Under the pieces are notes generated by a model, which saw nothing but the letters and a program-made list of their open reading frames with translations, was not told the DNA's origin and did not search any database. A DNA stretch of 64,000 nt from Hippea sp. KM1 (GTDB lineage: Bacteria; Campylobacterota_A; Desulfurellia; Desulfurellales; Hippeaceae): contig NZ_JAFP01000001.1 in the NCBI RefSeq assembly GCF_000526195.1, positions 124,001 through 188,000 of the forward strand. The letters run 5' to 3'. This document shows, in pieces, positions 31,274-37,203 of this stretch (positions are counted from its first letter, which is position 1; each line of letters opens with the position of its first letter). The translations under genes were made by a program, and so were the position numbers.

Positions 31274-31300
31274 CCCGCGCGCTCTGCGCGGGTTTTGTTT
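31274..31300 (+). terminator. Rho-independent terminator of cydAB
   Basis: CCCGCGC, loop GCTCT, GCGCGGG, then TTTTGTTT. It closes the cydAB transcript before the tRNA gene. Confidence 0.9.
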
Positions 31301-31340
31301 GACTTACATCTCCCGTTGTGTATAAATAAAAATCCCAAAG

Positions 31341-31417
31341 GCGCCTGTAGCTTAATTGGATAGAGCAGCAGACTTCGGATCTGCGGGTTGGGGGTTCGAG
31401 TCCCTCCAGGCGCACCA
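31341..31417 (+). tRNA. tRNA-Arg (anticodon TCG)
   Basis: A full cloverleaf: acceptor stem GCGCCTG with CAGGCGC, anticodon stem GCAGA with TCTGC around the loop CTTCGGA (anticodon TCG, reads CGA), T-loop TTCGAGT and an encoded CCA end at 31415-31417. The toxin-antitoxin island starts right behind it, which makes its 3' end a candidate integration site. Confidence 0.95.
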
Positions 31418-31484
31418 CCTTCAACCTTTTCCACCTTGTATGTTATTCCCACCAGCCCATCATCTGTGTTATTATTCTAATATA

Positions 31485-31661
31485 GGGCTGATAGGGAAGG
31501 TGTGGCCCTTTGCACCTGGAGCGTTTATCCCTGTTAAGGGATAAACAGCTCGATTCGCAGATTGACCCAACCTTCCCTAAGTTTGAACAGTAGCCGGAAC
31601 GCTTCTTTTTATAAGAAGCTGTCTGTATACAAGGTAAAATAGGGAAGGCTCCCTATCAGCC
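31485..31661 (+). ncRNA. Unassigned structured RNA candidate (about 177 nt)
   Basis: The segment folds by eye into a closed multibranch structure. A perfect 12-bp outer stem pairs GGCTGATAGGGA (31486-31497) with TCCCTATCAGCC (31650-31661). Inside are AGGTG/CACCT (31498-31517), a 13-bp bulged hairpin GAGC-GTTTATCCC / GGGATAAAC-A-GCTC (31519-31551) and a 9-bp stem CCTTCCCTA/TAGGGAAGG (31571-31579 with 31640-31648) topped by GCTTCTT/AAGAAGC (31601-31619). No long ORF fits. A 6S-like RNA is possible by size, but the branching differs. SRP RNA, tmRNA and RNase P motifs are absent. The strand is inferred from the tRNA and xre direction. Confidence 0.55.
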
Positions 31662-31704
31662 ATTATAATCCTTTATTGTGGAAATTTCAAAGGGGGGGTA
31701 AACG

Positions 31705-31980
31705 ATGAGCGATTTGCAAAGATACATGAAGAAGAGAAAAGCTAAAGATAAAGAATTTAGAGAGGGATTTGATTCTGGGTATGAGGAGTTTAAAATAGGG
31801 ATTTTACTGAAAATGGCAAGACAGGAAGCTGGTCTTACTCAGGAGGAGCTCGCTAAACTGATTAACACTAAGAAAACATCCATATCGAGAATAGAAAACC
31901 ACGCTGAAGATATAAAAATATCTACGCTCAAGAAAATCGCCGGCGCCTTAGGGAAAGAGCTTAGGGTGGAGTTGATATAA
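31705..31980 (+). CDS. XRE-family antitoxin-like regulator (HigA-like), partner missing
   Basis: 91 residues: a charged N-terminus, then a helix-turn-helix LLKMARQEAGLTQEELAKLINTKKTSISRIE split at residues 35-65, ending ALGKELRVELI. This is the usual HigA/YgjM-type antitoxin plan. No HigB gene is present upstream, where the structured RNA candidate lies, nor downstream. GGGGGG precedes the ATG at a workable distance. Probably an orphan antitoxin. Confidence 0.78.
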   Translation: MSDLQRYMKKRKAKDKEFREGFDSGYEEFKIGILLKMARQEAGLTQEELAKLINTKKTSISRIENHAEDIKISTLKKIAGALGKELRVELI

Positions 31981-32024
31981 AAGAGACCATATTTTTGAAA
32001 TACTACAATATGTAAAATATAGAC

Positions 32025-32053
32025 TTGATTCATACACACTTATTGTGTATTGT
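32025..32053 (+). promoter_or_regulatory. Promoter and operator of relB-yafQ
   Basis: TTGATT (32025-32030) and TATTGT (32048-32053) are 17 bases apart. The spacer is nearly filled by the perfect palindrome ATACACA-CTTAT-TGTGTAT (32032-32050), the expected binding site for RelB autorepression. Confidence 0.6.
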
Positions 32054-32073
32054 ATAAAAACGGAGGTGATAAA

Positions 32074-32352
32074 ATGAGTTCCGTAAGTAAGGAAAGAATC
32101 AGAACTAACCTATCTCTCGATAAGGAAGCCAAAGAAAAAGCAAGGAAAATATTTGAAAAATACGGTCTCAGTTTGAGCGAGGCTGTAAACATCTTTCTTT
32201 ATCAGAGTATTTACTCTAACGGTATTCCCTTCAGAGTAGAGATACCAAACGAAGAAACAGTTAAAGCTATGGAAAATGTAAGAAAAGGAGAGAACTTAGA
32301 GGAAGTTACACTTGACCAGCTCAAAGAGGAAGCCAAGCAGTGCTTAAAATAA
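32074..32352 (+). CDS. RelB/DinJ-family antitoxin
   Basis: About 92 residues. The ribbon-helix-helix start is SKERIRTNLSLDKEAKEKA, then GLSLSEAVNIFLYQSI, typical of DinJ/RelB. ATG 32074 is chosen for the GGAGGTGATAAA site. It overlaps the YafQ-type toxin by 13 bases, so the pair is translationally coupled. This looks like the most complete module of the island. Confidence 0.88.
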   Translation: MSSVSKERIRTNLSLDKEAKEKARKIFEKYGLSLSEAVNIFLYQSIYSNGIPFRVEIPNEETVKAMENVRKGENLEEVTLDQLKEEAKQCLK

Positions 32353-32615
32353 GAAGAGAAAAAACCTTCGTGAAGGATTTAAAAAAAGTAAAAATGACGG
32401 ATCATCAGTATCAGAAATACATATCCTATATAGCAAGGCTCCAAGAGGGTAAAGAACTCCCAAAAGAGGCATACGATCACCCTTTGGTGGGTAATTGGAA
32501 AGATTTTAGAGAATTTCATCTGGGCGGGGATTTGATTTTAGTTTACAAAATAGACGAAGAATATCTTACGCTTGTAAGGATAGGCTCTCACGCAAAAATT
32601 TTTAAAGACGATTAA
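32340..32615 (+). CDS. YafQ-family mRNA interferase toxin
   Basis: 91 residues from a GTG start. RelE-fold YafQ features are present: DHPLVGNWKDFREFHLGGDL with catalytic His residues, ILVYKIDEE and the C-terminal IGSHAKIF, where the last His is catalytic in YafQ. It should cut mRNA on the ribosome. No disruption is seen, so this toxin may be active. Its 3' end GACGATTAATA resembles the repeats around the phd-relE cassette. Confidence 0.87.
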   Translation: MLKIRREKTFVKDLKKVKMTDHQYQKYISYIARLQEGKELPKEAYDHPLVGNWKDFREFHLGGDLILVYKIDEEYLTLVRIGSHAKIFKDD

Positions 32616-32629
32616 TAAAATACATCAAA

Positions 32630-32914
32630 TTACTTTAAAACAACCTCAATCTCACAATCAAGAGCTTCTGCGTATTTTATGAGTGTATTGAGGCTCGGAG
32701 CATAGGTGTTATTGAGGCTTTCAAGTCTTGATATGTTTGATTTTGAGGTTTTCATTCTCCTTGCTACCTCTTCTTGAGTAAGTCCTTTCTTTAGTCTTGC
32801 AGTCAGAAGTTCCTTTTTTATCCTGAAAATAGGAGCCAATCTATCGTACTCTTTTTTTACTTCAGGATTGCTTAAAGCCTCTTTCTTAAACTCTTCAAAA
32901 GTTGGCCTACTCAT
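32630..32914 (-). CDS. HigA-type XRE antitoxin
   Basis: 94 residues. The helix-turn-helix is at KKGLTQEEVARRMKTSKSNI (about 43-62), ending in ALDCEIEVVLK. It follows the damaged higB on the minus strand with an 8-base overlap and its own AAAGGAGGTG site. An 8-4-8 palindrome upstream of higB is its likely operator. The antitoxin is intact although the toxin is not. Confidence 0.85.
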   Translation of the reverse strand: MSRPTFEEFKKEALSNPEVKKEYDRLAPIFRIKKELLTARLKKGLTQEEVARRMKTSKSNISRLESLNNTYAPSLNTLIKYAEALDCEIEVVLK

Positions 32915-33071
32915 TGTCCACCTCCTTTTTTCTGCTTAAAGCAATTTCAAATTCCCTCTTTGGAGTTTTCTGAGTTTTCTTAATAAAGAAAAGTTTTCCC
33001 AATATTTTAGGAGGAAAGTTTAAGGTATCCTGTTTCACTTTTTCGTTGAAAAACTCTATTTCCCACTTCAC
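32907..33071 (-). pseudogene. HigB-type toxin with large in-frame internal deletion
   Basis: From GTG 33071 the 54 codons read WEIEFFNEKVKQDTLNFPPK, then ILGKLF, and jump to FIKKTQKTPKREFEIALSRKK. Both ends are standard for the Gp49/HigB family, whose members have about 105-115 residues. The middle, including LRPKGKEGIARVFY-type strands that carry the active site, is absent. The frame is kept, so a small hybrid peptide could still be made and might bind HigA. Confidence 0.7.
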
Positions 33072-33077
33072 TGTAAT

Positions 33078-33105
33078 ATGTTATCAAAAATGATAACAAA
33101 GTCAA
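33078..33105 (-). promoter_or_regulatory. Promoter and operator of higBA
   Basis: Minus-strand TTGACT (33105-33100) and TAACAT (33083-33078) with a 16-base spacer enclose the perfect palindrome TGTTATCA-AAAA-TGATAACA (33079-33098). The site ends 7 bases before the GTG start, so the message is nearly leaderless. HigA repression is the likely use. Confidence 0.6.
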
Positions 33106-33114
33106 TATTTAAAC

Positions 33115-33133
33115 GATTAATACCACGAAATAT
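33115..33133 (+). repeat. Direct repeat, left copy, beside the phd-relE cassette
   Basis: GATTAATACCACGAAATAT recurs with one mismatch at 33771-33789. The two copies bracket the phd-relE unit. Confidence 0.7.
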
Positions 33134-33137
33134 CAAA

Positions 33138-33166
33138 TTGACTTTATTCCCATTTATACTTATAAT
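33138..33166 (+). promoter_or_regulatory. Sigma-70 promoter of phd-relE
   Basis: TTGACT (33138-33143), a 17-base spacer and a perfect TATAAT (33161-33166), about 35 bases before the phd ATG. It is divergent from the higBA promoter. Confidence 0.65.
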
Positions 33167-33201
33167 ATTACTTAGATAAATACTTATTAGGAGGATAAGC
33201 C

Positions 33202-33483
33202 ATGTTAGTAGATACAGACAGAATTGTAGGAATAGCGGAGCTCCAAAAGAACCTCCCAAGGATAATAAGACAGTTAGAGAAAGAGGAAAAACCAGTGTTT
33301 GTTAGCAGAAGAAACAATATCTCCGCCGTTATACTGTCAGCTGAAGAGTATAAGAAAATATCTGAGCTTCTAAACCTATTAGAAGATATGGAAATAGCAG
33401 ATCAGATTAGGGAAAGAATGAAAAATTACAATCCAGAAAAAAATGTATCATGGGAAAAGGTAAAAGAAAAATATGGCTTATAA
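33202..33483 (+). CDS. Phd/YefM-type antitoxin
   Basis: 93 residues: GIAELQKNLPRIIRQLEKEE, VFVSRRNNISAVILSAEEY and a long helical tail, the plan of Phd/YefM DNA-binding antitoxins. AGGAGG precedes the ATG. The downstream RelE gene begins inside its last codons but is broken. Confidence 0.87.
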   Translation: MLVDTDRIVGIAELQKNLPRIIRQLEKEEKPVFVSRRNNISAVILSAEEYKKISELLNLLEDMEIADQIRERMKNYNPEKNVSWEKVKEKYGL

Positions 33484-33776
33484 GATAGAATTCATTCCTG
33501 AAGCCCTAAAGATTTCGATGAGCTGGACAGATCTTTAAAAATCCAAGCCAAGAAGAAGATTGATAAGCTCTCCGAAAATCCCTACATAGGCAAGCTTTTA
33601 TCCAACAAGGCAGGAAAGGATTTAACGGGTTTTTTACAAGCTCTATTTCTACAAAAGGAAATACCGAATAGTTTACAGGATCATAGAAGACAAAATAGAA
33701 GTAGTGCAGATATAGGGCATAGGCAAGAGAGATAAAAGCAAGATTTTACGACACCGTTTCTAAGAGATTAGATTAA
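33473..33776 (+). pseudogene. RelE-family toxin, multiple frameshifts
   Basis: ATG 33473 opens MAYKIEFIPEALK and then shifts. A missing A in CTAAAGATTTC breaks the first frame, which stops after 21 codons. The next frame reads DFDELDRSLKIQAKKKIDKL and SENPYIGKLLSNKAGKDLTG, until an extra T in GGTTTTTTAC moves it again to YKLYFYKRKYRIVYRI. A further shift occurs near CAGATATAGGGC. The remaining text ends SKRLD. All parts of a RelE/ParE toxin are thus recognisable but unreadable as one protein. Confidence 0.8.
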
Positions 33777-33789
33777 TACCACAAAATAT
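33771..33789 (+). repeat. Direct repeat, right copy, at the relE 3' end
   Basis: GATTAATACCACAAAATAT, one mismatch from 33115-33133. It includes the last codon and stop (GAT TAA) of the relE remnant. The intact yafQ gene ends with a looser version (GACGATTAATAAAATA). Confidence 0.7.
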
Positions 33790-33934
33790 AAAGAAAAAAT
33801 GCGCTGGGTTTTCAATCTTATATAGCAACTTTGCACCTTACACACGACTATAACATAGAACAGGTAGATTCCTAATGCTTCAGCGATAGAGATCAACGCC
33901 AATACTTTATGTTTTTCTCTGAAATTGCTCTTCA
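33790..33934. other. Stretch without a convincing gene in the toxin-antitoxin island
   Basis: On the minus strand an open frame of about 47 codons begins at 33935 (MKSNFREKHKVLALISIAEA), but it has no known motif or ribosome site. It is probably leftover sequence from a decayed gene. Nothing else is seen. Confidence 0.4.
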
Positions 33935-34122
33935 TCAGAATAATGCTTCAAAATCCCTCGGTGAGATGATCTTTATGCTTTTGCACTCTTTACTTCCTCG
34001 ATTATTACTGGACACACAAACAATTCAAACTCTTTTAGCCTTGCTCTTTTTAAAAGAGCAGAACATACACCCTCCGTAGCAAAGGCAGAGATAAAAGCAT
34101 TCGTGCCAAACACTATTCTCAT
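33935..34122 (-). pseudogene. PIN-family toxin remnant with internal deletion and altered active site
   Basis: ATG 34122, in an ATGA overlap with the antitoxin stop, reads MRIVFGTNAFISAF, FELFVCPVIIEEVKSAKA, then TAA. In PIN toxins the first motif is FDTN. Here the metal-binding Asp is Gly. Right after the stop another frame gives KIISPRDFEALF and TGA (33935), the usual C-terminal tail of this family, so about 70 central residues are missing. The toxin must be inactive. Confidence 0.7.
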
Positions 34123-34337
34123 GATACATGCTCAAAAACATCTTCTTCCGCAATGACACCAGCTTTCTTGGCAAGCGGCTTTATCTTGCTTTTGGCTTTT
34201 TCAAATCTCTTTTCCCAAAGGTAAAAATTGACAGACTCTCTTACCACATCGCTTTTGTTTCTCCCTGTCTCTTTGGCAAAAGAATCCAACCTCTTATAGG
34301 GGTTTTCTGGCAAATGTATAGACAAAACTGTTCGCAT
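34119..34337 (-). CDS. Ribbon-helix-helix antitoxin
   Basis: 72 residues: TVLSIHLPENPYKRLDSFAK, GRNKSDVVRESVNFYLWEK, a CopG/RHH DNA-binding antitoxin of the type paired with PIN toxins. AGGAGG lies before the ATG. It is followed by the damaged PIN gene in an ATGA overlap. Confidence 0.82.
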   Translation of the reverse strand: MRTVLSIHLPENPYKRLDSFAKETGRNKSDVVRESVNFYLWEKRFEKAKSKIKPLAKKAGVIAEEDVFEHVS

Positions 34338-34434
34338 ATCTGTCTCCTCCTTGTGTGTTATAATTAACTACATACTACATTAAATCTTGAAAAAACAAGA
34401 ATTTTGGCAGTTTAGGGAGGAAGTGTGTTTTAAC

Positions 34435-34463
34435 TTTCCAAAAATATATATTTATTGTATAAT
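34435..34463 (+). promoter_or_regulatory. Putative sigma-70 promoter of brnTA
   Basis: TTTCCA (34435-34440), a 17-base spacer and TATAAT (34458-34463). The predicted start of transcription is near 34470, where an ATG lies, so the message would be leaderless or nearly so. Confidence 0.5.
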
Positions 34464-34474
34464 TTCTATATGAT

Positions 34475-34759
34475 ATTAAGTTTGAGTTCGACCCAAACAA
34501 GAGTAAAGCCAATAAGGAGAAACACGGCATAGATTTTATTGAGGCGGAGAAACTTTGGAAGGATAAAAACCTATTGATCGTTCCTGCAAAGAATGTAAAA
34601 GGAGAAAGTAGGTTTGCTCTCATAGGCAAGTTAAACGGTAAATGTTTGATATGTATTTTTACATTGAGGAACAATGCCTACAGGATAATAAGTGTCCGTA
34701 GGTGTAGAAAGAAGGAGGAGGAGCTGTATGAAAAGAAAAGCAGGAAAAATAACCAATAA
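34475..34759 (+). CDS. BrnT-family toxin with a missing or shifted start codon
   Basis: The open frame reads KFEFDPNKSKANKEKHGIDF, IEAEKLWKD and ends IISVRRCRKKEEELYEKKS, a full-length BrnT ribonuclease toxin of about 94 residues. No ATG, GTG or TTG precedes KFEF in frame. The first codon available is ATT at 34475. An ATG sits 5 bases upstream (34470) in another frame. Loss of one AT pair in ATGATATTAAG would give the normal family start MIKFEF. Either ATT is used or an AT slip has silenced the toxin. Confidence 0.68.
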   Translation: MKFEFDPNKSKANKEKHGIDFIEAEKLWKDKNLLIVPAKNVKGESRFALIGKLNGKCLICIFTLRNNAYRIISVRRCRKKEEELYEKKSRKNNQ

Positions 34760-34991
34760 AGAGTTTGATGATCTTTTCGATAAAGGAGAAGACATAACAG
34801 AATACCTTGATACAGATAACTCCATGTCTTTGGATGAATTTGAAAGCAGATATAAAATCAAAAGGGTTAATGTTGATTTCCCCTCATACATAGTTGACTT
34901 ATTAGACAAAGAGGCGAAAAAGATAGGGGTTACAAGGCAGTCCCTAATAAAGATGTGGATATCGGAGAAGATATTTGAGAAAAGCAAATAA
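34728..34991 (+). CDS. BrnA-family antitoxin
   Basis: About 87 residues. It shows ITNKEFDDLFDKGEDITEYLD and the C-terminal ribbon-helix-helix RVNVDFPSYIVDLLDKEAKK, VTRQSLIKMWISEKI, standard for BrnA. ATG 34728 is chosen because GGAGGAGGAG precedes it. It overlaps brnT by 32 bases. BrnA normally represses the pair. Confidence 0.87.
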   Translation: MKRKAGKITNKEFDDLFDKGEDITEYLDTDNSMSLDEFESRYKIKRVNVDFPSYIVDLLDKEAKKIGVTRQSLIKMWISEKIFEKSK

Positions 34992-35048
34992 AGGCATGCT
35001 TATAGCTTATCACCTGCACGACTGCTTTAACTATTGCAGGAGGCCAGT

Positions 35049-35303
35049 ATGAGCATAGCAGGTAAAATATACAAGGAGCTTGAGCTATTACCCGAAGATA
35101 AACAGGTAAAGGTTTTAGATTTCATCAAATACCTTACAGAAAAACAGTCAGAAGAAGAAATAGAACAGTCAAGACATATCGGACATAAAAAGACGCACAA
35201 GAGGGCGCTATTGGCTCGTATTCCTTACTCTCAGGTTTATAGGGGCAAGGATAAGCGAGGTAATAAACATAAAACACGAGGATATAGACTTAAAAGGGGT
35301 TGA
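35049..35303 (+). CDS. DUF2281-type antitoxin head joined to a decayed recombinase tail
   Basis: About 84 residues. Residues 1-40 (KIYKELELLPEDKQVKVLDF, IKYLTEKQ) are the N-terminus of a DUF2281 antitoxin, with a CAGGAGG site. After that the expected tail is replaced by HKKTHKRALLARIPYS. Two frames over, the same DNA reads GARISEVINIKHEDIDLKG, the catalytic-arginine region of a tyrosine recombinase. I read the second half as a frame-damaged integrase fragment, so the ORF product is probably meaningless beyond residue 40. Confidence 0.5.
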   Translation: MSIAGKIYKELELLPEDKQVKVLDFIKYLTEKQSEEEIEQSRHIGHKKTHKRALLARIPYSQVYRGKDKRGNKHKTRGYRLKRG

Positions 35304-35332
35304 CAAATGACACAGTATCTGCGAGGTGAAAA

Positions 35333-36217
35333 ATGGTTGAGTTTGTTGCGGAGGTTTCGAGTAATCATAATGGGGATTTGAACAGATGCTTAAAGTTTGT
35401 GGAAGAGGCGAAAAGGAGCGGTTGTGATGGTGTTAAGTTCCAGCTGTTTAAAATTGACCAACTGTTTGCGCCTGAGATTCTAAAATACAGTGAAGAGCAC
35501 AGGAAAAGAAAGGAATGGGAGTTGCCTGTTGAGTTTTTGCCCGAAATCTCAAGAAAATGCAAAGAGGTCGGAATAAAGTTTGTTTGCACACCGTTTTATT
35601 TGGATGCCGTTGATGAGCTTGAGCCTTATGTTGATGTATACAAGATTGCGTCTTATGAGCTTTTGTGGCACGACCTTTTTAAAAAATGCGCATCAACGGG
35701 AAAGCCCGTTATTGTGTCAACTGGCATGGCAACGCTCGATGAGGTCAAGAACGCTGTGGATGTACTCATTAAAAATGGATGCAGAGACATAACGGTCTTG
35801 CAGTGCACATCGAGTTATCCGACGCCACCTGATCAGTGCAATTTATCGGCAATTAAGACAATGAGAAATGCGATTAAAGCGCCCGAAGGTGTAAGGCTTA
35901 AATTCGGCTGGTCTGACCATTCGGTAAACGAGGGCGTCATACTGCGCGCTATCCACAGATGGAATGCAGAGATGATCGAGTTCCACTTCGATTTGGATGA
36001 AAGGGGTGAGGAGTACAAATTCGGGCACTGCTGGTTGCCAAATAGGGTCAAAAACCTGATAAAGATGGCAAGAAATGGATTTTTAGCAGATGGGAACGGA
36101 ATCAAGGCGCCACAGGAAAACGAGCTTGAAGAGAGGAACTGGCGAGCAGATCCTACAGATGGTCTAAGGCCCCTAAAACAAACAAGGATCAAATGGCTGA
36201 AACAGTTAGAAAAATAG
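35333..36217 (+). CDS. NeuB-family nonulosonate (sialic-acid-like) synthase without SAF domain
   Basis: 294 residues of the NeuB TIM barrel: FVAEVSSNHNGDLNRCL, SGCDGVKFQLFK, KFVCTPFYLDAVDEL, KIASYELLWHDLF, VSTGMATLDEV, LQCTSSYPTPP, GWSDHS. These enzymes condense phosphoenolpyruvate with an amino-hexose to form nonulosonic acids. The usual C-terminal antifreeze-like SAF domain (about 60 residues) is missing. The protein ends in EERNWRADPTDGLRPLK, which suggests a distinct subfamily and not a broken gene. It overlaps the next gene by 25 bases. Confidence 0.86.
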   Translation: MVEFVAEVSSNHNGDLNRCLKFVEEAKRSGCDGVKFQLFKIDQLFAPEILKYSEEHRKRKEWELPVEFLPEISRKCKEVGIKFVCTPFYLDAVDELEPYVDVYKIASYELLWHDLFKKCASTGKPVIVSTGMATLDEVKNAVDVLIKNGCRDITVLQCTSSYPTPPDQCNLSAIKTMRNAIKAPEGVRLKFGWSDHSVNEGVILRAIHRWNAEMIEFHFDLDERGEEYKFGHCWLPNRVKNLIKMARNGFLADGNGIKAPQENELEERNWRADPTDGLRPLKQTRIKWLKQLEK

Positions 36218-37174: not shown

Positions 37175-37203
37175 TTTTTTTGCACCTACGAGGTGCAAAA
37201 AAA
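37175..37203. terminator. Bidirectional terminator
   Basis: TTTTTTTGCACCT, loop ACG, AGGTGCAAAAAAA: a symmetrical hairpin with a T-tract on both strands, between the convergent PseG-like and AAA-ATPase genes. Confidence 0.82.

What the first reader, a model, noticed from the sequence alone, without database searches (positions are those of the whole stretch)
31485..31661. Unassigned multibranch RNA with two competing partners for one strand
The outer 12-bp stem, two strong hairpins and a 9-bp stem are all perfect or nearly so, and no known RNA family fits well. The sequence TAGGGAAGG occurs twice (31492-31500 and 31640-31648) and both copies can pair with CCTTCCCTA (31571-31579), which could make a two-state switch. 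It lies between tRNA-Arg and an orphan antitoxin gene, with no terminator-like T-tract. It could be a 6S-like regulator, a mobile-element RNA or a new class.
Basis: seen in the sequence. Interest (0 to 1): 0.75.

Follow-up and report, generated by a model that had tools for sequence, protein, structure and literature searches.

The report
Bridge RNA of a transposase-less insertion element
The folded RNA is the guide ("bridge") RNA of an IS110-type jumping gene that has lost its recombinase gene and now brackets a cluster of decaying toxin-antitoxin genes; such guide RNAs have been known since 2024, so it is a new example of a known kind.

Summary
It is not 6S and not a new class. Window 31432-31699 is 92% and 88% identical to the DNA just upstream of IS110-family recombinase genes in two related MAGs. 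The RNA carries the four bridge-RNA guides in IS621 order: LTG UUUGCACCU, RTG UUCGCAG, LDG ACAGUA, RDG UACAAGG. The element ends ACAGTAT-CT-TGTAT are identical to those of E. coli IS621. A matching right end lies at 35292-35320, and the outer flanks join into a REP-like palindrome of the kind the guides match. So 31435-35320 (3.9 kb) is most likely one IS110-derived element whose recombinase gene was replaced by decayed toxin-antitoxin and integrase fragments. No intact IS110 recombinase was found in this genome. The "two competing partners" are the closing stem of the target loop versus that of the donor loop; the two folds lie within 0.4-4.7 kcal/mol in all three copies. A functional switch is possible but untested. 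Whether the element is a dead relic or movable in trans is open.

The parts
31427..31436 (+). Left half of the REP-like insertion target (TTTTCCAC) plus the core dinucleotide CT (31435-31436)
   Evidence: Sequence; joined to 35319-35332 it gives TTTTCCAC-CT-GCGAGGTGAAAAA, one mismatch from a perfect palindrome; homologous palindromes elsewhere in the genome
31435..31699 (+). IS110-type left end (LE) with the former recombinase ribosome-binding site
   Evidence: 92% / 88% identical to the LE upstream of IS110 recombinase genes in L003/L004
31439..31444 (+). -10 box (TATGTT) of the promoter predicted to be rebuilt when the ends join in a circle (RE TTGACA, 17 nt, TATGTT)
   Evidence: Junction built; IS110 circle-junction promoter described in PMC11208160
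31453..31490 (+). Candidate 5' stem-loop CAGCCC/GGGCUG (competes with the outer stem)
   Evidence: L003/L004 change 31455-31488 from G-C to A-U on both sides and 31456-31487 from C-G to U-G
31485..31661 (+). Bridge RNA structured core (the finding); full transcript probably starts near 31451-31454
   Evidence: Fold z = -7.5; guide content; homology
31492..31500 (+). Copy 1 of TAGGGAAGG: 5' strand that can close the target-binding loop (fold B)
31509..31517 (+). Left target guide UUUGCACCU
   Evidence: Exact match to REP palindromes TTTTGCACCTACGAGG in the same genome, e.g. window 37178-37200
31519..31551 (+). Apical hairpin of the target-binding loop
31554..31560 (+). Right target guide UUCGCAG (pairs with CTGCGAG right of the core, one G-U)
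   Evidence: Target at 35319-35325; relatives have UUCGUAG with CTACGA targets
31571..31579 (+). CCTTCCCTA, strand shared by the two alternative closing stems
31587..31592 (+). Left donor guide ACAGUA (same sense as the RE end ACAGTAT)
31628..31634 (+). Right donor guide UACAAGG (complement of LE start CCTTGTA)
   Evidence: (inverted repeat I4)
31640..31648 (+). Copy 2 of TAGGGAAGG: 3' strand of the donor-loop closing stem (fold A); hairpin with TCCCTA in fold B
31662..31690 (-). Promoter-like site TTGAAA-17-TATAAT that would be read antisense to the bridge RNA
   Evidence: 11 of 12 consensus bases, hexamers kept in L003 and L004; 4 such sites occur in the 64-kb window, so chance is not excluded
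31700..35291 (.). Interior where the recombinase gene should be: HTH antitoxin (31705-31980), RelB/YafQ pair (32074-32615), HTH antitoxin (32630-32914, -) with a non-contiguous relic of its partner, Phd-type antitoxin (33202-33483), RHH antitoxin (34119-34337, -), CopG-type antitoxin (34692-34991), DUF2281 start fused to a tyrosine-recombinase fragment (35175-35291)
35292..35320 (+). Right end (RE): TTGACA -35 box (35300-35305), left-donor sequence ACAGTAT (35312-35318), core CT (35319-35320)
   Evidence: Exact match TTGACAAATGACACAGTATCT here and at a second RE relic in the same genome, C1:12664-12684; RE downstream of the recombinase gene in L003
35321..35332 (+). Right half of the REP-like target, directly before the neuB-like gene (35333-36217)
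   Evidence: Empty palindrome at the same place in a relative (L025); RE relic at the same place in another (L018)

Best explanation
31485-31661 is the structured core of a bridge RNA (seekRNA) encoded in the left end of an IS110-group insertion sequence with IS621-type ends. In an intact element, circularisation joins RE and LE and rebuilds a promoter (TTGACA-17-TATGTT). The RNA made from it binds the element's DEDD recombinase. Its target loop (LTG 31509-31517, RTG 31554-31560) selects REP-like palindromes, and its donor loop (LDG 31587-31592, RDG 31628-31634) recognises the joined ends ACAGTAT-CT-TGTAT, so the circle is inserted at the CT core. Here the recombinase gene is missing. Between LE (31435-31699) and a matching RE (35292-35320) lie decaying toxin-antitoxin genes and an integrase fragment. 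The locus is therefore a non-autonomous, probably dormant IS110 derivative with an intact-looking bridge RNA. The TAGGGAAGG/CCTTCCCTA competition decides whether the target loop (fold B, IS621-like) or the donor loop (fold A) gets the strong closing stem. Shown: homology, guide matches, ends, target reconstruction, absence of a recombinase. Inferred: transcription, recombinase binding, which fold is active, a single-insertion origin.
For: (1) 92%/88% identity over 31432-31699 to the region immediately upstream of recombinase genes in L003/L004; the L003 protein has both IS110 domains, PF01548 and PF02371. (2) All four guides occur in bridge-RNA order; the summed ordered match of 24 nt was not reached in 400 dinucleotide shuffles of the RNA (maximum 22). 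(3) Donor ends are identical to IS621 over ACAGTAT-CT-TGTAT (IS621 sequence from E. coli). (4) The RE lies at 35292-35320 in the same orientation, and the flanks rebuild a REP-like palindrome. (5) Species-matched guides: the window LTG has 0 mismatches to two own-genome REPs and at least 2 to all G011 REPs; the G011 element's LTG has at least 2 mismatches to all own REPs and 1 to most G011 REPs. (6) RE-LE joining rebuilds TTGACA-17-TATGTT. (7) The structured core is 177 nt here and the IS621 bridge RNA is about 177 nt, LE-encoded (PMC11208160).
Against: No expression data. Only three nearly complete copies, so structural covariation is thin: one double change in the 5' stem and one in the donor-loop apical stem, each possibly a single event. 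The elements in G011 and G014 did less well in the same guide test (3 and 4 of 400 shuffles as good), and the guide in G014 fits its own site poorly. L003 breaks 3 pairs of either fold. No empty sister site with tRNA-Arg directly next to neuB was found among relatives, so LE and RE as one insertion is inferred. Two independent REP insertions would also leave REP halves at both ends.
Confidence: 0.9

Rival explanations
1. Dead relic: an ordinary IS110 copy lost its recombinase through deletion and insertion of toxin-antitoxin island DNA; the bridge RNA is merely not yet decayed and does nothing.
For: Interior genes are truncated at both junctions: the toxin partner is missing at the LE side and an integrase fragment is cut exactly at the RE side. 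Several TA genes are broken. The only other IS110 trace in the genome is a C-terminal recombinase fragment.
Against: The whole LE and the 29 bp of RE that carry the -35 box and donor sequence are intact, the bridge RNA has no indels against L003 in the aligned core, and its guides match REPs of this genome.
Confidence: 0.6
2. Trans-mobilisable cargo element: LE with bridge RNA, TA cargo and RE form a natural mini-IS that moves when a related recombinase is present.
For: Ends and guides are intact and the recombinase gene is cleanly absent. Engineered mini-IS elements with cargo between the ends move when recombinase and RNA are given in trans (PMC11187229), and a bridge RNA works in trans (PMC11208160).
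Against: One copy only, no recombinase in the genome, degraded cargo; related TA modules sit in other contexts without IS ends in a relative (L073).
Confidence: 0.2
3. LE and RE come from two separate IS110 insertions (one after tRNA-Arg, one before neuB) and merely bracket the TA genes.
For: The REP before neuB is a hotspot: RE relic in G005 (L018), truncated LE in G011 (L007), empty palindrome in G004 (L025). In the genus-mate G007 tRNA-Arg is followed by trpE, not neuB.
Against: Same orientation, no second RE or LE remnant inside, and the flank halves are complementary with one mismatch.
Confidence: 0.25
4. The RNA has been co-opted as a 5' leader that controls the adjacent HTH antitoxin gene.
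For: The former recombinase ribosome-binding site now sits a few nt before the antitoxin ATG.
Against: The junction looks like a deletion that removed the toxin; the same RNA precedes recombinase genes in relatives, so its structure predates this fusion.
Confidence: 0.05
5. 6S-like RNA or an unrelated new RNA class.
For: Strong fold and no Rfam hit.
Against: Homology to IS110 left ends, four guides and element-end matches; no 6S hit even at E <= 10.
Confidence: 0.02

Closest known systems
IS621 bridge RNA (IS110 group; PMC11208160, PMC11208158)
   Same: About 177 nt, encoded in the LE upstream of the recombinase, order LTG-RTG-LDG-RDG, core CT, donor ends ACAGTAT-CT-TGTAT identical, REP-type targets, promoter rebuilt at the circle junction.
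   Different: No obvious sequence similarity outside the donor guides. Target and donor loops share one closing strand (CCTTCCCTA), giving two alternative folds. LTG and RTG target a different palindrome (CACCT-RCGAGGTG). No recombinase gene in this copy.
seekRNA of ISEc21 / IS110 family (PMC11187229)
   Same: RNA from the NCR upstream of tnp that matches both strands of the target; an engineered mini-IS with cargo is the laboratory counterpart of the LE-cargo-RE arrangement.
   Different: Natural rather than engineered; carries toxin-antitoxin relics; movement not shown.
ISPpu9 Asr9/Ssr9 small RNAs (PMC8450116)
   Same: IS inserted in REP sequences with small RNAs encoded next to the transposase gene (abstract).
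   Different: Only a promoter-like antisense site is seen here; no RNA evidence.

Membership tests
IS110-group bridge RNA | Encoded in the long LE just upstream of a DEDD recombinase (PF01548 + PF02371) | tested here: met
   Met in the homologous elements L003/L004; in the window the gene itself is lost
IS110-group bridge RNA | Donor guides complementary to the joined RE-LE ends | tested here: met
   ACAGUA vs RE ACAGTAT; UACAAGG vs LE CCTTGTA
IS110-group bridge RNA | Target guides complementary to the left bottom and right top strands of the insertion site | tested here: met
   9 of 10 at left (TTTGCACCTG vs TTTCCACCTG), 7 of 7 with one G-U at right (sequence); exact to REPs elsewhere in the genome on the left side
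IS110-group bridge RNA | Core dinucleotide shared by both element ends and the target | tested here: met
   CT at 31435-31436 and 35319-35320
IS110-group bridge RNA | Promoter rebuilt across the RE-LE junction | tested here: met
   TTGACA-17-TATGTT; sequence only, activity not tested
IS110-group bridge RNA | Two internal loops (target, donor), each in its own stem-loop, after a 5' stem-loop | tested here: inconclusive
   Present in fold B (with a 5' stem in the 5'-extended window RNA); the MFE fold A nests the donor loop in a multibranch. Gap 4.0 / 4.7 / 0.4 kcal/mol in window, L003, L004
IS110-group bridge RNA | RNA binds the recombinase and directs recombination | not testable with these tools
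   Needs biochemistry
6S RNA | Match to the Rfam 6S models | tested here: not met
   No hit at gathering threshold or at E <= 10
Autonomous IS110 insertion sequence | Intact recombinase gene between LE and RE | tested here: not met
   PF01548 absent from the whole genome; only a C-terminal fragment at C1:12717-13067

The most novel reading that the evidence does not exclude
A natural, recombinase-less IS110 'cargo' element in which the bridge RNA travels with its own ends and carries toxin-antitoxin genes, mobilised in trans by related recombinases, with a bridge RNA whose shared closing strand switches between a target-loop fold and a donor-loop fold.
Probability: 0.15. Interest if true: 0.7.

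Novelty: new member of a known kind. Interest (0 to 1): 0.45.

Why it matters
It adds a divergent bridge RNA, from a Desulfurellales lineage, that shares IS621's donor ends but not its sequence, with guides tuned to the local REP palindromes. It also shows a bridge RNA gene that has outlived its recombinase gene. If such orphan units can be moved in trans, RNA-guided DNA insertion would have natural non-autonomous passengers, as other transposon families do. It also shows that RNAs of this class are missed by current Rfam models.

Tried and rejected
Rfam at gathering and at E <= 10: nothing. 6S, antitoxin leader and new class: rejected on homology. Empty-site search through tRNA-Arg and neuB in relatives: no genome has the two genes adjacent. 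Related recombinase in IMG/VR viral contigs: none; in plasmids only below 60% identity, about 31% for the best-scoring. More distant IS110 elements in the phylum (L087, L088, 39% identity) share ACAGTATCT at RE and GAACAGTATC in the presumed RNA but not the sequence, so they could not extend the structural alignment. Idea that the TA genes form a clean cassette array: rejected, since no convincing repeats were found between modules and modules are truncated at the junctions. No covariance model was built: three usable sequences would add little. Literature: no paper found on natural IS110 elements with bridge RNA but no recombinase (open-licence library only).

Full report
Observation. The 31470-31680 strand folds at -83.4 kcal/mol against -51.8 +/- 4.2 in dinucleotide shuffles (z = -7.5). 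Rfam gives nothing at gathering threshold and only chance-level matches at E <= 10. The tRNA-Arg and HTH antitoxin neighbours are confirmed, and no terminator-like site was found in 31300-31800.

Homologues. The sequence is single-copy in its own complete genome (1,742,311 bp). In 60 relatives it recurs nearly full-length in two genomes of another genus, at 92% (L003) and 88% (L004) over window 31432-31699, and truncated twice more in one of them. In both full copies it sits directly upstream of a recombinase gene. The L003 protein (315 aa) matches PF01548 and PF02371, the two domains of IS110 recombinases. The L004 gene is broken. The contig titles name the hosts as Desulfurellales/Desulfurellaceae MAGs.

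Anatomy. The element ends in L003 read ...AACACAGTAT-CT at RE and CT-TGTATGTTAC... at LE. The same ends occur in E. coli IS621, fetched here...AACAGTAT-CT and CT-TGTAT... The RNA carries ACAGUA (31587-31592, same sense as RE) and UACAAGG (31628-31634, complement of CCTTGTA at LE). These are the left and right donor guides of a bridge RNA as defined in PMC11208160. Upstream lie UUUGCACCU (31509-31517) and UUCGCAG (31554-31560), the left and right target guides. The summed ordered match of all four guides, 24 nt, was not reached in 400 shuffles of the RNA (maximum 22). The same test is weaker for L003 (3 of 400) and L004 (4 of 400).

A matching right end in the window. The RE sequence TTGACAAATGACACAGTATCT occurs twice in the genome: with a C-terminal recombinase fragment at C1:12664-12684, and at window 35300-35320 in the same orientation as the LE. 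The outer flanks, TTTTCCAC before the core at 31435 and GCGAGGTGAAAAA after the core at 35320, join to TTTTCCAC-CT-GCGAGGTGAAAAA, one mismatch from a perfect palindrome. Similar palindromes are dispersed in this genome (TTTTGCACCTACGAGGTGCAAAA at window 37178 and C1:357117) and in relatives, with almost no reversed-pattern controls. Joining RE to LE rebuilds TTGACA-17-TATGTT, the circle-junction promoter expected of IS110 elements.

Guide-target agreement. The window's left guide has no mismatch to two REPs of its own genome and at least two to every G011 REP. The L003 guide has one mismatch to most G011 REPs and at least two to all own REPs. The right guides differ in step with the sites: UUCGCAG with CTGCGAG here, UUCGUAG with CTACGAG in L003. 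In L004 the fit is poor on the left and needs a G-U on the right.

Interior. No intact recombinase: PF01548 is absent from the genome. Between the ends lie antitoxin genes (HTH, RelB, Phd, RHH, CopG), one complete RelB/YafQ pair, and broken partners. The first HTH gene's closest plasmid relative overlaps a RelE/ParE toxin gene by 4 nt; here the toxin is gone and the LE stands in its place. The last ORF is a DUF2281 start fused, in another frame, to a tyrosine-recombinase fragment that ends exactly where RE begins. Parts of this interior are 86-93% identical to segments in relative G003 that have no IS ends. So the interior is captured, decaying DNA rather than a tidy cassette array.

The two competing partners. 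Fold A (copy 2 with CCTTCCCTA, closing the donor loop) and fold B (copy 1 with CCTTCCCTA, closing the target loop, with copy 2 in its own hairpin) score -80.5/-76.5 in the window, -82.0/-77.3 in L003 and -74.0/-73.6 in L004. Extending the window RNA to the predicted start narrows the gap to 1.8 kcal/mol. Fold B resembles IS621's arrangement of separate target and donor loops. Its 5' stem CAGCCC/GGGCUG is supported by one double change. I take B as the likelier recombinase-bound form and A as the alternative ground state; this is inference.

What is shown and what is not. Shown: homology to IS110 left ends, guides, ends, target reconstruction and absence of the recombinase. Inferred: transcription, protein binding, single-insertion origin, which fold is active. 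No genome with tRNA-Arg next to neuB was found. The REP before neuB is a repeated IS target in relatives, so a two-insertion origin stays possible.

Verdict. A new member of the IS110 bridge-RNA kind, in a recombinase-less element. The most novel reading not excluded is a trans-mobilisable natural cargo element. Engineered versions work in the laboratory (PMC11187229), and I found no report of natural ones in the papers searched.

Noticed in passing
window 31662-31690 (-): Near-consensus promoter TTGAAA-17-TATAAT pointing antisense into the bridge RNA, hexamers conserved in L003 and L004; ISPpu9, another REP-inserted IS, has small RNAs encoded near its transposase gene.
   Followed up: partly
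window 35319-35333: The right REP half (GAGGTGAAAAATG) lies where the ribosome-binding site of the neuB-like gene should be, so REP and gene start overlap.
   Followed up: no
L018, L007, L025: The REP upstream of neuB is a repeated IS110 target in the family: RE relic in G005, truncated LE in G011, empty palindrome in G004.
   Followed up: partly
G000:C1:12664-13067 (L009): Second IS110 relic in this genome: C-terminal 117 residues of the recombinase plus RE; a transposase-like ORF of a different kind (367 aa) lies directly upstream in the locus.
   Followed up: partly
window 35175-35291: Homologue of a tyrosine-recombinase segment (84% to G005:C23), read in a different frame inside the DUF2281 ORF and cut exactly at the IS right end.
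   Followed up: yes
L087, L088: More distant IS110 elements (39% identical recombinase) with the same RE end ACAGTATCT and a different, strongly folded upstream RNA containing GAACAGTATC.
   Followed up: partly
window 6646 and 37183: Further REP-like palindromes CACCTRCGAGGTG; the one at 37183 has long arms (TTTTTTTGCACCTACGAGGTGCAAAAAAA).
   Followed up: partly
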